Below, piece by piece: positions 16,831-35,527 of a DNA stretch of 45,468 bases (positions are counted from its first letter, which is position 1; the number at the start of each line of letters is the position of its first letter). The notes under the pieces were generated by a model that saw only the letters and a list, made by a program, of their open reading frames with translations, did not search any database and was not told where the DNA came from. The translations under genes and the position numbers were made by a program. This DNA is from an uncultured Elusimicrobiales bacterium. GTDB lineage: Bacteria > Elusimicrobiota > Elusimicrobia > Elusimicrobiales > Elusimicrobiaceae. The stretch spans positions 1 to 45,468 of the forward strand of contig CALUYP010000029.1 of NCBI GenBank assembly GCA_944325055.1, written 5' to 3'.

Positions 16831-17454
16831 TCAGATCTCTTGATGAAGCACTTTCAGAACCGCCTTTTCTTTGGCTACCGGTAAACACTCTTGTACCCGG
16901 TACTTTTTCCCTTCTACCAGTTTCGACAAGGCGGCTATATCTGCATCAGTCAATACTTCTTTATCGTAAGTGGTACGAAATTCGTAGGCCAAGCCGGATT
17001 GGCAGATTAAATCCATCGATTCGCGCAATACGGCCGGATTAAATTCCACTCCCGTAATGAGGGCATATTTCTCCAACGGCGCTTTTAAATCCATAGCGAT
17101 ATAGTCCAGCAAATGCTCGCCAATGAGTTTTTTCAGCATTTCCGGACGGGTACCGTTGGTATCCAGCTTAACGGCATAGCCCATGGATTTGATTTTTTTC
17201 AGAAAAGCAGGCAAATCATCATGCAAAGTCGGCTCTCCGCCAGAAACAACAACGCCCTCCAAGGTTCCCTGGCGGCGTTTTAAAAAAGCGTCAATTTCCC
17301 CTTCGGCAACAGGTTCCGTGAACAAATGCGGGTACACTAATTCCGGATTGTGGCAATAACGGCATCGGAAATTACATCCTTGCGTAAATATCACTGCTGC
17401 CGGACGGCCCGGAAAATCAATCAGTGTAAACTTAATCAGCCCGCCTATTTTCAT
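16831..17454 (-). CDS. nrdG: Anaerobic ribonucleotide reductase activating protein
   Basis: A 207-residue radical-SAM protein. The 4Fe-4S motif appears as CNFRCRYC (CxxxCxxC) after FTQGCNF, followed by VVVSGGEPTLHDD (SAM-binding GGE) and KLDTNGTRPEML. It is of the short pyruvate-formate-lyase-activase/NrdG type that generates the glycyl radical. It lies 27 bases downstream of the 70-residue glycyl-radical protein and so is probably co-transcribed with its substrate. Flanking order nrdD, radical-domain gene, nrdG supports the assignment. No dedicated ferredoxin domain is visible. Confidence 0.93.
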   Translation of the reverse strand: MKIGGLIKFTLIDFPGRPAAVIFTQGCNFRCRYCHNPELVYPHLFTEPVAEGEIDAFLKRRQGTLEGVVVSGGEPTLHDDLPAFLKKIKSMGYAVKLDTNGTRPEMLKKLIGEHLLDYIAMDLKAPLEKYALITGVEFNPAVLRESMDLICQSGLAYEFRTTYDKEVLTDADIAALSKLVEGKKYRVQECLPVAKEKAVLKVLHQEI

Positions 17455-31793: not shown

Positions 31794-32816
31794 ATGAATT
31801 TTGAATCGGTTAAAAAATATATTAAAGAGGCCGGACTGCCTAATTTCCGTATCGCGCAAGTACAGGAAGCGGTTTTTAAAAAAGGAATTTCATCATGGAA
31901 CGAAGCCACTAACCTGCCTGTTCAGCTGCGGGAACAGTTAAAAAAGGATTGCCCTATTTTAAGTTTTGAAGTAACGGAAATTACTTGCTCCCAACGAGAT
32001 AAAGTTGCCAAAGCGCTTTTAACGTTAAAAGACGGCTGGCGTATTGAAACTGTTCTTTTAAAACCCCAAGAAAGTTGGAGTGTGTGCGTTTCCAGCCAAG
32101 TGGGCTGCCCGCTGCGATGTTCCTTTTGCAGTACGGGAAAAATGGGGTTTAAACGCGACTTGACCCAAGAGGAAATTACGGACCAAGTGCTGATGTGGTA
32201 TCAATACGTACGGCGCGAAAAACTGGGAGAACGTATTTCCAGCGTGGTATTTATGGGGATGGGGGAGCCGCTCTTGAATTATCTGAATGTTGTAAAAGCG
32301 GCTAAAGATTTATCCAATCCCGATTATTTGAACATAGGCGCGCGGCATATTTCCGTTTCCACCTCCGGTATCGCGGATAAACTCCATAAGTTGGCGGTCG
32401 ATTTGCCGCAGGCTAATTTAGCCGTTTCACTTCATAATGCCGATGATGCCGAACGAAGCCGGATAATGCCTGTGAACCGCCGTTACGGGTTGGATGATTT
32501 GAAAAAAGCGTTGGAAGAATATATCGCCATGACGGGACGGCAGGTTTTTTTGGAATACTCCGTCATTGAAAACGTAAACAGCCGTCCGGAGCATATCCGC
32601 AAATTGGCGGATTGGATTTATAGTATTAAAGATAATTATTTGCTTCATGTGAATTTAATTGCGTGTAATTTAGGACGCGGCGAAAAAACCGATGACAAAA
32701 TTGTTAAAGATTTCGCCGCCGGACTTAAAGCCATGGGAATCGGGGTAACCATCCGCAAAAGCATGGGGAACGATATTTTGGCTGCTTGCGGACAGTTGGC
32801 TTCCCAAAAGAAATAA
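31794..32816 (+). CDS. rlmN: 23S rRNA (A2503-C2) / tRNA (A37) methyltransferase
   Basis: A 340-residue radical-SAM enzyme. C105, C109 and C112 (CPLRCSFC) bind the cluster; VVFMGMGEPLLN is the SAM-binding GGE-like segment; SVSTSGI and NLAVSLHNADD follow; and the second catalytic Cys is in ILAACGQL near the end. These are the hallmarks of RlmN (rather than Cfr). It has a TATAAT-like -10 and AAGGAAAG site just upstream and is followed by a lipoprotein gene with a 12-base gap. Confidence 0.95.
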   Translation: MNFESVKKYIKEAGLPNFRIAQVQEAVFKKGISSWNEATNLPVQLREQLKKDCPILSFEVTEITCSQRDKVAKALLTLKDGWRIETVLLKPQESWSVCVSSQVGCPLRCSFCSTGKMGFKRDLTQEEITDQVLMWYQYVRREKLGERISSVVFMGMGEPLLNYLNVVKAAKDLSNPDYLNIGARHISVSTSGIADKLHKLAVDLPQANLAVSLHNADDAERSRIMPVNRRYGLDDLKKALEEYIAMTGRQVFLEYSVIENVNSRPEHIRKLADWIYSIKDNYLLHVNLIACNLGRGEKTDDKIVKDFAAGLKAMGIGVTIRKSMGNDILAACGQLASQKK

Positions 32817-32828
32817 AGAGGAGTGCAT

Positions 32829-33266
32829 ATGAGAAAATTAAAAATTTTAAGTGCGGTTATACTGCTTTTAGCCGGTTGCGCTACATTGGAACAGAGTAAT
32901 TTGGATTGGATTCCAATCGGGCCGGATTTTCCTCCTACTAAAGCCAAAAAAGTGGAAATTTTGGGAAGCAAAGCGGAAATAACCCGTCCTTACGGAAACT
33001 TGGGGCTGTTGCGTATTAAAAATTTAAAACCAGACCGCGATGTGCTGAAAATGGGCGTTGAGAAAGGACGCCGCTTTGTAGCCTCTAAAGGAGCTGACGC
33101 AATGTTAATTGGACAATATAACAGCGCGGAGGATGGAGCCTCCGAACCACGCGTGACGTTGATTATTTATGCCATTAAATACGTCGATCAGCTGACGGAA
33201 GAAGACCAAAAAGCGATTGAAGATTTTAAGGTATTGGGGATTTTAAATGAACGTTCTGATAGCTAA
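32829..33266 (+). CDS. Small lipoprotein of unknown function
   Basis: A 145-residue protein with the lipoprotein signal MRKLKILSAVILLLAGC. The ATG at 32829 is preferred over the upstream GTG because AGAGGAG lies six bases before it. The mature part has two mixed alpha/beta stretches (KAKKVEILGSKAEITRPY and GVEKGRRFVASKGADAMLIG), reminiscent of small DUF4156/RcsF-like lipoproteins, but I cannot assign a family. It overlaps the ComB-QueC gene by 20 bases, so it is translated in the same transcript. Confidence 0.8.
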   Translation: MRKLKILSAVILLLAGCATLEQSNLDWIPIGPDFPPTKAKKVEILGSKAEITRPYGNLGLLRIKNLKPDRDVLKMGVEKGRRFVASKGADAMLIGQYNSAEDGASEPRVTLIIYAIKYVDQLTEEDQKAIEDFKVLGILNERSDS

Positions 33267-35190
33267 AACCATCGAAGAATGTAAACAATGGACCGAAGTG
33301 GCTGTAATAATAGATGTATTACGGGATGCTACCACGGTTTGTGCGCTGTTGGAAAAAGGGAAAAAAGAACTCTTGGTTTTTGGAAATGTCCAACAGGCGG
33401 CTGTTTTTGCCAAAGAGCATGGAGAATTCGAAATTTACTGCGAAGGCGATTTTCAAGCTGCGCACGAGGACAATTCTCCTTTTTTGGCTTCTAAATCCAA
33501 CGCCCGGAAACCTGCACTTTTGGTGGCTTCTTCTTCTACAGGACATTTTATCTTTTCCAGCCAAGCTTCACTCCTTTTTTTGGGAGGATTTTGTAACTTT
33601 CATGCATTGGCAGAAAAGCTGGAAGAACAAAATAAAAGTATATTGCTGATTCCCAGCTCCCTCTACACGGGAAAGGATGACGTGGAAGATAATTTCTGCG
33701 CCGCAGCGTTAAAAGATTGTATTCAAGGGATTGGCAATCCGCAGGAAGCGATTATTGAGTTTAATAATACAATGCGCTATGAAGAGTTTGTAGCACAAGG
33801 CACTAAAACCGCCCAAAAAGATCTGAAAATCGCTTTTAATTTGGATGCTTTGCCGGTGGTGCCGCAAATCAGCCGTTCAAATGAAGAATACGGGGTATGT
33901 CATCCGTATGGACAGGTGCCTTCTGAAAAATGGTTTATTCAGAAACCGGAATCTTCCCAACCCGTTACGGCTCCGTTGCCGGCTGAACCGCCAGATGACA
34001 TTCCGCTGCAACCATTGACACAAGAGGTAAAAGCACCCAACCCGGAAACAAAGGGCTCTGAAACAAAAATACCAAAAGAACAAACGAATCTTCAGAAAGA
34101 GAAGCCTTCGGCGTCCCAACAGGCGGACCGGACGGAAGAGTCTTCGCTAAAGAAGGAATCGCCCGCTGTAAAAGAAAATCTAGCCGCCGCTAAAAAGACT
34201 GCCACGACGCGTTTGAAAGGATTTTTTAGCGGTATTTTACAAGCGGTAAAAGAAGAAAAAGCGGAATTTGAAAGGGAAATCGCTCCTAAAAAAGCGCAGC
34301 CCCGTAAGGCGGTTACTCACCAGTCAGAAGATCTGCTTGACCAGGTTTTGAAAAGAGCAGAAAAAACATCTAGACCTAAGGAGCCTGTTTCACAAGAAGT
34401 GACTTCGTCCGCTTCTTCTCCCCAACAAGAGAAGCAGGAAGAAAAATCGGATCTAAAGCCAAGAGATTCTTCTTCAGAAGTTACTTTTTCCGGTCAAAAA
34501 TCCGGTTTTGAAGACAAGAACCCCAAAAAGGCGATTGTGCTTTTTTCGGGAGGATTAGATTCCACTACCTGTCTGTATTGGGCCTTGTCACAAGGATATG
34601 AATGTGAAGCGCTGACGGTTTCATACGGACAGCGTCATGAAAGAGAAGTATTGGCGGCGCAAGAGATTGCACGCCGTTTAGGAATTAAACATCATTTAAT
34701 TACGCTTGATTTGCCATGGCTTTCTTGTTGTTCGTTGGTGGATAAAAAGCAAAAACTTCCGGATGTGGCGGTAGAAGACATTCCCAAAGAAGGAATTCCT
34801 TCTACCTATGTGCCGGGACGGAATCTTATGTTCCTGGCTATAGCAGGTTCTTTGCTGGATGCGGTGGGAGCGGAGGCTGTCATTGCGGGGCCTAACGCAA
34901 TTGATTTCTCCGGCTATCCGGATTGTACGCCTGCATTTTTTAAAGCTGCCGCCGAAGCGCTTAACCGCGGTACTAAGACGGGAGTTAGTGAAGGAATAGA
35001 AGTATTGGCGCCGCTGATGCGTTATTCCAAGGCACAAATAGTAAAATTAGCCGCCAGTTTAAAGGTTCCCTTTGAATTGACGTGGAGTTGTTATGCCGGC
35101 GGCAAGAAGCCATGCGGACACTGCGATTCATGCAAATTGCGTGCGAAAGGGTTTGCGGAAGCCGGCGTACACGATACCGCTTTAGACTGA
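33247..35190 (+). CDS. queC: ComB-like domain fused to 7-cyano-7-deazaguanine synthase (QueC)
   Basis: A 647-residue single chain. Residues 1-235 match the 2-phosphosulfolactate phosphatase (ComB) fold: VAVIIDVLRDATTVCALLEKG, CEGDFQAAHEDNSPF, and DDVEDNFCAAAL. Its TTNGT loop is changed to SSSTG (96-99). Residues ~240-425 are a Pro/Lys/Glu-rich, low-complexity linker. Residues 427-647 are a complete QueC: PP-loop FSGGLDSTT (434-439), YVPGRNLMF, GPNAIDFSGYPDC, and zinc cysteines C615, C623, C626, C629. QueC makes preQ0, the precursor of queuosine, from carboxy-deazaguanine and ammonia. No Met start lies at the QueC border, so the fusion is real within this reading. The ComB partner's role is unknown. 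Confidence 0.92.
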   Translation: MNVLIAKTIEECKQWTEVAVIIDVLRDATTVCALLEKGKKELLVFGNVQQAAVFAKEHGEFEIYCEGDFQAAHEDNSPFLASKSNARKPALLVASSSTGHFIFSSQASLLFLGGFCNFHALAEKLEEQNKSILLIPSSLYTGKDDVEDNFCAAALKDCIQGIGNPQEAIIEFNNTMRYEEFVAQGTKTAQKDLKIAFNLDALPVVPQISRSNEEYGVCHPYGQVPSEKWFIQKPESSQPVTAPLPAEPPDDIPLQPLTQEVKAPNPETKGSETKIPKEQTNLQKEKPSASQQADRTEESSLKKESPAVKENLAAAKKTATTRLKGFFSGILQAVKEEKAEFEREIAPKKAQPRKAVTHQSEDLLDQVLKRAEKTSRPKEPVSQEVTSSASSPQQEKQEEKSDLKPRDSSSEVTFSGQKSGFEDKNPKKAIVLFSGGLDSTTCLYWALSQGYECEALTVSYGQRHEREVLAAQEIARRLGIKHHLITLDLPWLSCCSLVDKKQKLPDVAVEDIPKEGIPSTYVPGRNLMFLAIAGSLLDAVGAEAVIAGPNAIDFSGYPDCTPAFFKAAAEALNRGTKTGVSEGIEVLAPLMRYSKAQIVKLAASLKVPFELTWSCYAGGKKPCGHCDSCKLRAKGFAEAGVHDTALD

Positions 35191-35191
35191 T

Positions 35192-35527
35192 ATGTGGAAA
35201 TATTATTTGTTTTTAGCGGGAGCCATTGTATGTGAGATAATAGGCACCAGCGCCCTGAAGGCATCACGGGGATTTAGCATACCTGTTTGGGCGGTTATGA
35301 CGGCTGCAGCGTATGCGGGGTCGTTCTGGTTATTGGGGCTTACGTTAAAAGGAATTTCTTTAGGAGTGGCTTATGCCGTTTGGGCTGGGGTGGGAACTGT
35401 CCTTACGGTATTAGTTGGACTTGTTATTTTTAAAGAAAAGCCGGATCTGCCTGCTTTATTGGGGATCGCGCTTATTATAGCTGGGGTAACCGTGATGAAT
35501 TTATTTTCTAAAACGGTTTCCCATTAA
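35192..35527 (+). CDS. SMR-family small multidrug/guanidinium transporter
   Basis: A 111-residue protein with four membrane helices. The essential membrane glutamate is present (GAIVCEIIGTSALK, Glu in helix 1), with GISLGVAYAVWAGVGTVL in helix 3 as in EmrE/SugE/Gdx proteins. It should exchange protons for small cations such as quaternary amines or guanidinium. It begins two bases after the QueC fusion stop, suggesting co-transcription. The drug/guanidinium distinction cannot be made confidently. Confidence 0.93.
   Translation: MWKYYLFLAGAIVCEIIGTSALKASRGFSIPVWAVMTAAAYAGSFWLLGLTLKGISLGVAYAVWAGVGTVLTVLVGLVIFKEKPDLPALLGIALIIAGVTVMNLFSKTVSH

What the first reader, a model, noticed from the sequence alone, without database searches (positions are those of the whole stretch)
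33247..35190. ComB-like domain fused to QueC through a long disordered linker
One 647-residue ORF joins a ComB-type (2-phosphosulfolactate phosphatase) domain to a complete QueC. I know of no described pathway uniting these. The ComB loop TTNGT is changed to SSSTG, so the domain may have a new substrate, for example a phosphate released during deazaguanine metabolism, or a structural role. The linker is charged and proline-rich.
Basis: partly seen in the sequence, partly recalled or inferred. Interest (0 to 1): 0.75.

Follow-up and report, generated by a model that had tools for sequence, protein, structure and literature searches.

The report
ComB-like domain fused to queuosine enzyme
A gut bacterium of the phylum Elusimicrobiota joins QueC, an enzyme needed to make the tRNA base queuosine, to an unrelated phosphatase-like ComB domain through a long floppy linker; the fusion is real, shared by dozens of related species and apparently undescribed, but what the extra domain does is unknown and several relatives have dropped it.

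Summary
One 647-residue ORF (33247-35190, +) encodes a ComB-fold domain (PF04029, residues ~1-225), a ~195-residue disordered linker and a complete QueC (~426-647). It is not an assembly artefact: 32 species of the window's genus and 3 of a sister genus (one a single closed-size 1.64-Mb contig) carry it. In the sister family the same two genes lie side by side (lipoprotein-ComB-queC-queE) in 43 of 44 scanned loci. The tree gives one fusion event and at least three later losses of the ComB part. ComA is absent from all 81 genomes checked, so this is not coenzyme M or sulfolactate synthesis. ComB-containing and ComB-less species both keep FolE, QueD, QueC and Tgt, so the domain is dispensable for that pathway. 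It is under purifying selection and in the window keeps D23, R26, E66, NSP, N117 and E147-D148. Its asparagine is replaced across the whole order; the remaining decay is recent. The linker carries two conserved helical motifs found in no other protein. Best reading: an accessory phosphatase-like domain of an Elusimicrobiales-only subfamily, fused to its operon neighbour and now relaxing; a fortuitous fusion is the main rival. Function is inferred, not shown.

The parts
33247..35190 (+). ComB-linker-QueC fusion ORF, 647 aa
33247..33921 (+). ComB-fold (2-phosphosulfolactate phosphatase-like) domain, residues 1-225
   Evidence: Pfam PF04029 70.8 bits; full-length model, pLDDT mostly 85-95, matches 1vr0/2z0j/2yyv
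33313..33324 (+). D23..R26 motif (DVLR); D23 invariant in all groups, R26 kept here but lost in 6 of 33 fusions of the genus
33442..33444 (+). E66, the Glu of canonical GER (E17/D14 among 33 fusions of the genus)
33469..33480 (+). D75-N76-S77-P78, the NSP motif, kept
33526..33540 (+). Loop A94-S95-S96-S97-T98, aligned to canonical T-T-N-G-T; degraded in the window lineage
33685..33690 (+). E147-D148, the ED motif, kept
33934..34515 (+). Disordered linker, residues ~230-423
   Evidence: pLDDT mostly 30-50; composition
34210..34272 (+). Conserved linker motif 1, RLKGFFSGILQAVKEEKAEFE (322-342), predicted helix
34324..34365 (+). Conserved linker motif 2, SEDLLDQVLKRAEK (360-373), predicted short helix
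34477..34491 (+). Linker motif 3, EVTFS (411-415), kept in the window's subclade and a few others
34522..35187 (+). QueC (7-cyano-7-deazaguanine synthase) domain, residues 426-647
   Evidence: PF06508 241.9 bits; TIGR00364 217 bits over cut-off 150.3; model matches QueC 3bl5/2pg3
34546..34563 (+). QueC PP-loop SGGLDS (434-439)
35089..35133 (+). QueC cysteine cluster C615/C623/C626/C629
32823..33266 (+). Small putative lipoprotein, overlaps the fusion start by 20 nt; conserved upstream neighbour in both families, no Pfam or NCBIfam match
31794..32816 (+). RlmN, conserved upstream of the lipoprotein in the window's family
35192..35527 (+). SMR-family transporter directly downstream; present in some relatives only

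Best explanation
A two-domain protein made by joining operon neighbours. SHOWN: comB-like and queC are adjacent separate genes in the sister family; they fused once in the ancestor of the window's genus and a sister genus; the linker is 2-41 residues in the sister genus and 109-330 in the window's genus, where it carries two conserved motifs; the ComB part was lost at least three times in the genus. INFERRED: the QueC half is an ordinary preQ0 synthase feeding tRNA queuosine. The ComB half belongs to an Elusimicrobiales-only ComB subfamily, ancestrally a divalent-metal phosphatase whose substrate is not phosphosulfolactate, acting as an accessory (probably house-cleaning) hydrolase alongside preQ0/pterin synthesis. 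It works as a tethered, semi-independent module rather than as a pathway step. In the window lineage its substrate loop is decaying and activity may already be weak or gone, while the fold stays under purifying selection.
For: Both domains detected and folded. Separate adjacent genes in the sister family, and ComB directly followed by queC in 43 of 44 loci of a scan of 84,980 species genomes, 42 of them also preceded by the lipoprotein. In that family ComB occurs in 53 of 53 genomes with a strong QueC hit and is absent from five without one; G145 is the single ComB-only case, a fragmented MAG with ComB at a contig end. In G050 ComB stays with queC-queE although the lipoprotein is gone from the site. 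Single fusion origin and at least 3 losses on a 53-row tree. Purifying selection on ComB: dN/dS ~0.03-0.29 in close pairs. D23, E66 and NSP invariant, ED conserved, in the unfused subfamily as in canonical ComB; N96 changed throughout the order. No ComA in 81 genomes. FolE, QueD and Tgt present and a QueD-QueE-FolE cluster in the window's own genome. Linker motifs specific to fusions.
Against: No substrate is identified and no activity shown. Adjacency alone is weak evidence: the lipoprotein is equally conserved beside queC without an obvious link to it. ComB-less species keep the preQ0 genes tested. G120 keeps an intact-looking ComB on a different contig from queC. The loss in g10 removed the lipoprotein too, so it does not separate ComB from its neighbours. 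The loop, and in some species R26, is eroded in the genus.
Confidence: 0.45

Rival explanations
1. Fortuitous fusion: ComB has its own unrelated housekeeping function; the two genes overlapped or nearly abutted in the ancestral operon, a stop codon was lost, and the fusion is tolerated because a flexible linker keeps the halves independent.
For: In the sister family ComB and queC often overlap by 4 nt, so a small mutation could fuse them. The fusions of the sister genus have linkers of only 2-41 aa. Upstream neighbours are conserved regardless of function. ComB is lost repeatedly with preQ0 genes intact and can live apart from queC (G120).
Against: ComB tracks queC in the sister family (53 of 53). 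The fusion has persisted through much of a genus and carries conserved linker motifs, which pure tolerance does not predict.
Confidence: 0.3
2. Structural or docking module: the ComB fold has become a non-catalytic scaffold and, with the linker motifs, binds a partner or sets the location or oligomeric state of QueC.
For: Fold under selection (dN/dS mostly below 0.3) while the loop and, in 6 of 33 species, R26 are lost. Two linker motifs conserved over most of the genus and found nowhere else, predicted helical in a disordered region.
Against: D23, NSP and ED remain nearly invariant, as expected for a catalytic site. Sister species with the same linker motif still have T-x-x-G-T loops. ComB and linker are dropped together without loss of QueC.
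Confidence: 0.2
3. Canonical 2-phosphosulfolactate phosphatase of coenzyme M or sulfolactate synthesis that happens to be fused.
For: Same fold and Pfam family.
Against: ComA absent in 81 of 81 genomes. NCBIfam TIGR00298 33.8 bits against a cut-off of 175. Canonical Asn of TTNGT and Arg of GER replaced.
Confidence: 0.03
4. Misassembly or chimeric contig.
For: The source is a fragmented MAG (81 contigs).
Against: Same fusion in 32 species of the genus and 3 of a sister genus, one of them a single 1,643,562-bp contig, with the same flanking genes.
Confidence: 0.005

Closest known systems
QueC (7-cyano-7-deazaguanine synthase, PF06508/TIGR00364; structures 3bl5, 2pg3)
   Same: C-terminal 220 residues: over family cut-offs, PP-loop and cysteine cluster intact, fold match
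   Different: Carries an N-terminal ComB domain and linker; a 2026 survey of the QueC family (PMC13329287) reports a GATase fusion but, on a term search, does not mention this one
ComB, 2-phosphosulfolactate phosphatase (PF04029/TIGR00298; 1vr0, 2yyv, 2z0j)
   Same: Fold (TM 0.66-0.79; only ComB structures match significantly), D-x-x-R, E, NSP, N and ED positions
   Different: Asn of TTNGT replaced order-wide, Arg of GER lost, CAG becomes P-[AS]; no ComA in the genomes; below the equivalog cut-offs; fused to QueC
QueC-family proteins of phage defence (QatC; Cap9 of type IV CBASS)
   Same: QueC-like PP-loop fold (Cap9 9nto is a structural match)
   Different: No defence gene recognised among the neighbours examined; the QueC half meets the QueC equivalog cut-off and sits in genomes with the preQ0 pathway
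Biosynthetic enzymes fused to house-cleaning phosphatases (e.g. DUF89 with pantothenate kinase; from memory)
   Same: Possible precedent for a phosphatase tethered to a biosynthetic enzyme
   Different: Different folds and pathway; analogy only, no test made

Membership tests
QueC (TIGR00364, PF06508) | Curated score cut-off | tested here: met
   217 bits vs 150.3; 241.9 bits vs 22
QueC (TIGR00364, PF06508) | PP-loop SGGxDS and four-cysteine metal site | tested here: met
   SGGLDS 434-439; C615, C623, C626, C629 invariant
QueC (TIGR00364, PF06508) | Partner enzymes FolE, QueD, QueE, Tgt in the same genome | tested here: met
   QueD-QueE-FolE on C37
QueC (TIGR00364, PF06508) | Conversion of CDG to preQ0 | not testable with these tools
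   needs an assay
PF04029 fold family (ComB-like) | Pfam gathering score and fold | tested here: met
   70.8 bits vs 26.4; Foldseek hits to 1vr0, 2z0j, 2yyv
Canonical ComB enzyme (2-phosphosulfolactate phosphatase) | Equivalog score (TIGR00298) | tested here: not met
   33.8 bits vs 175.05
Canonical ComB enzyme (2-phosphosulfolactate phosphatase) | TTNGT loop and GER motif | tested here: not met
   ASSST and CEG in the window; the Asn is absent in every f1 and f2 group tabulated
Canonical ComB enzyme (2-phosphosulfolactate phosphatase) | ComA (PF02679) in the same genome | tested here: not met
   0 of 81 genomes; controls rang in B. subtilis and M. jannaschii
Canonical ComB enzyme (2-phosphosulfolactate phosphatase) | Mg2+-dependent phosphatase activity | not testable with these tools
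   needs an assay
QatABCD / type IV CBASS QueC-like | Neighbouring defence genes | tested here: not met
   Neighbours with a Pfam match are RlmN, SMR transporter and housekeeping genes; the PADLOC library was not run

The most novel reading that the evidence does not exclude
The Elusimicrobiales ComB subfamily is a previously unknown queuosine/pterin-branch phosphatase (for example acting on dihydroneopterin phosphates or another damaged or overflow intermediate). The fusion, with its private linker motifs, would be a tethered two-enzyme assembly that recruits a partner protein.
Probability: 0.15. Interest if true: 0.75.

Novelty: new variant of a known kind. Interest (0 to 1): 0.5.

Why it matters
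PF04029 proteins occur in many bacteria without coenzyme M, and their role there is mostly unknown (own knowledge; the control genomes include Thermus, Thermotoga, Deinobacterium and Synechococcus). Near-perfect linkage to queC-queE plus a real fusion gives a first testable pathway for one branch of the family. The family also offers a natural series (separate genes, short-linker fusion, long-linker fusion, ComB lost) for studying how an enzyme fusion arises, relaxes and is dismantled.

Tried and rejected
Misassembly: rejected by 34 other genomes with the fusion. Coenzyme M/sulfolactate role: rejected by absence of ComA. Window gene 16831-17454 as QueE: my first cluster grouping suggested it, NCBIfam says NrdG2; QueE of this genome lies on contig C37. 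ComB filling a gap in preQ0 synthesis: rejected, FolE/QueD/QueE/QueC are all present in the window's genome and ComB-less species keep the genes tested. Co-loss in g10 as proof of a functional link: not decisive, the lipoprotein is lost too. G137 keeps the lipoprotein but not ComB/queC at that site, but the genome is only 60% complete and keeps a QueD homologue. Long open frames around QueC in some sister-family genomes (e.g. 444 aa) are upstream in-frame extensions overlapping ComB in another frame, not fusions. Phage records: the listed matches to the G110 fusion cover only the QueC half and none covers 80%. First alignment for the genome scan was too divergent to use. Active-site residues of 1vr0 could not be read from the primary paper (not held); only that it binds (2R)-3-sulfolactate.

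Full report
Observation. The ORF at 33247-35190 (+) is 647 codons with an ATG start. Pfam finds 2-ph_phosp (PF04029) at residues 7-190 and QueC (PF06508) at 428-639, both over cut-off; NCBIfam names the second half QueC at 217 bits against a cut-off of 150.3. An AlphaFold2 model built from 21 fusions has two confident domains (about 1-225 and 425-647) joined by a low-confidence stretch, about 230-423, with helices only at 307-345 and 363-372. Foldseek matches the halves to QueC (3bl5, 2pg3) and ComB (2z0j, 1vr0, 2yyv). A model of a separate-gene ComB from the sister family (pLDDT 95.7) matches only ComB structures significantly.

Relatives. In the window's genus, about half of the 49 genomes first searched, the window's included, have the fusion and the rest have QueC alone. 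A phylum-wide search added further fusions, giving 32 from this genus with both halves in one ORF, among 35 fusions in all. A sister genus (G109, G110, G111) has the fusion with 2-41 aa between the domains; G110 is one contig of 1,643,562 bp, a size that fits the cultured Elusimicrobium minutum (identification from memory, not tested). One more genus of the family (G112) has lipoprotein-ComB-queC-queE as separate genes. The sister family f2 has the same order as separate genes. In a scan of 84,980 species genomes with the f2 ComB profile, all 44 loci found look like Elusimicrobiota (some records are titled only 'bacterium'); 43 have queC right after ComB and queE after that, and 42 of these also have the lipoprotein in front. 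The scan patterns were subfamily-specific, so a different ComB next to queC in another phylum is not excluded.

History. A tree of 53 rows (QueC with RlmN, PGM and enolase where available) is consistent with one fusion in the ancestor of the genus and its sister genus, with G112 as outgroup, and needs at least three losses of the ComB part inside the genus (rooting relies on one long-branch outgroup). In genus g15 only one of 18 genomes, G120, keeps a ComB, and it lies on a different contig from the RlmN-lipoprotein-queC locus. In f2, ComB is present in all 53 genomes with a strong QueC hit and absent in five that lack one; one fragmented genome (G145) has ComB at a contig end without a strong QueC.

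Is the ComB part alive? Pairwise dN/dS (NG86) in close pairs is about 0.02-0.18 for QueC, 0.03-0.29 for ComB, and usually 0.1-0.5 for the linker; so ComB is constrained but evolves several times faster at the protein level than QueC. Key positions: D23 is invariant everywhere; R26 is kept in 27 of 33 genus members; E66 is mostly E or D; S77-P78 and E147-D148 are nearly invariant. The canonical T-T-N-G-T loop reads T-[NRC]-[SA]-G-[SA] in f2 and T-[TG]-A-G-T in the short-linker fusions and in G112 and G120, but is variable in the genus. Thus the asparagine change is an old, subfamily-wide feature, while the rest of the loop change is a recent local decay. A general survey notes that Arg and Asn often bind sulfonates (PMC8473560); loss of this Asn and of the GER arginine is compatible with a non-sulfonate substrate, which is inference.

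Pathway context. ComA is absent in all 81 genomes searched, with positive controls ringing, so the canonical role is effectively excluded. FolE, QueD and Tgt are found in nearly all genomes, with and without ComB, and the window's own genome has a QueD-QueE-FolE cluster on contig C37. The ComB domain is therefore not an obligatory step of preQ0 synthesis.

Linker. In the genus the linker is 109-330 aa. Most of it is unalignable, but a helix motif, K-[GNS]-F-F-x-x-I-[LVI]-x-x-V-K-E-E-K-x-E-L-E, and a second motif, D-[DP]-[LMF]-D-x-[VL]-L-K, recur in most fusions. A profile of the pair, searched in 61 whole genomes, hits only the fused gene itself apart from one 16.7-bit match in another ORF that looks like chance. 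The motifs thus appear to have arisen in the linker and disappear with ComB. A docking role is inferred.

Explanation. The best-supported account is the fusion of two neighbours from a queuosine operon: a working QueC and an Elusimicrobiales-specific ComB-fold domain, probably an accessory phosphatase with a non-canonical substrate, whose active-site loop is eroding in this genus and which several lineages have discarded. A fortuitous fusion is nearly as plausible for the functional part. Architecture, distribution and losses are shown (confidence above 0.95 for the fusion itself); single origin rests on the tree; enzymatic role and link to deazaguanine metabolism are inferred. No paper in the library held QueC or queuosine together with 2-phosphosulfolactate (phosphatase), and a term search of the 2026 QueC family survey found no mention of this fusion.

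Noticed in passing
window 34210-34272 and 34324-34365: Two conserved helical motifs in the otherwise fast-evolving linker, private to the ComB-QueC fusions of this genus and lost together with ComB; a possible docking site.
   Followed up: partly
window 16831-17454 (-): Radical-SAM protein that groups weakly with QueE but is NrdG2 (anaerobic ribonucleotide reductase activase, 212.7 bits, cut-off 131).
   Followed up: yes
window 32823-33266 and L034:5233-5655: Small putative lipoprotein with a conserved GADA-like motif, no Pfam or NCBIfam match, kept beside queC in both families even when ComB is lost.
   Followed up: partly
L097:1338-2015 and L157: In G120 ComB lies on another contig, next to an OmpA-like gene and an MsrA-like gene, while RlmN-lipoprotein-queC remains without it.
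   Followed up: partly
L077 and L089: Two ComB-less QueC proteins have SSGLDS instead of SGGLDS in the PP-loop.
   Followed up: no
L156:2389-5508: Window genome cluster QueD, QueE, FolE, FolP-like, a second PTPS paralogue and FolK-like; the second PTPS occurs in nearly all of the genus but not in most of the sister family (possible folate PTPS).
   Followed up: no
L096:5123-5797: A very divergent ComB-like protein (g14, G113) away from queC; the RlmN-lipoprotein locus of this genome (L165) lacks both ComB and queC.
   Followed up: no
L043: In G065 ComB and queC-queE lie several kb apart on opposite strands of one contig, while in its congener G050 (L033) ComB-queC-queE are adjacent without the lipoprotein.
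   Followed up: no
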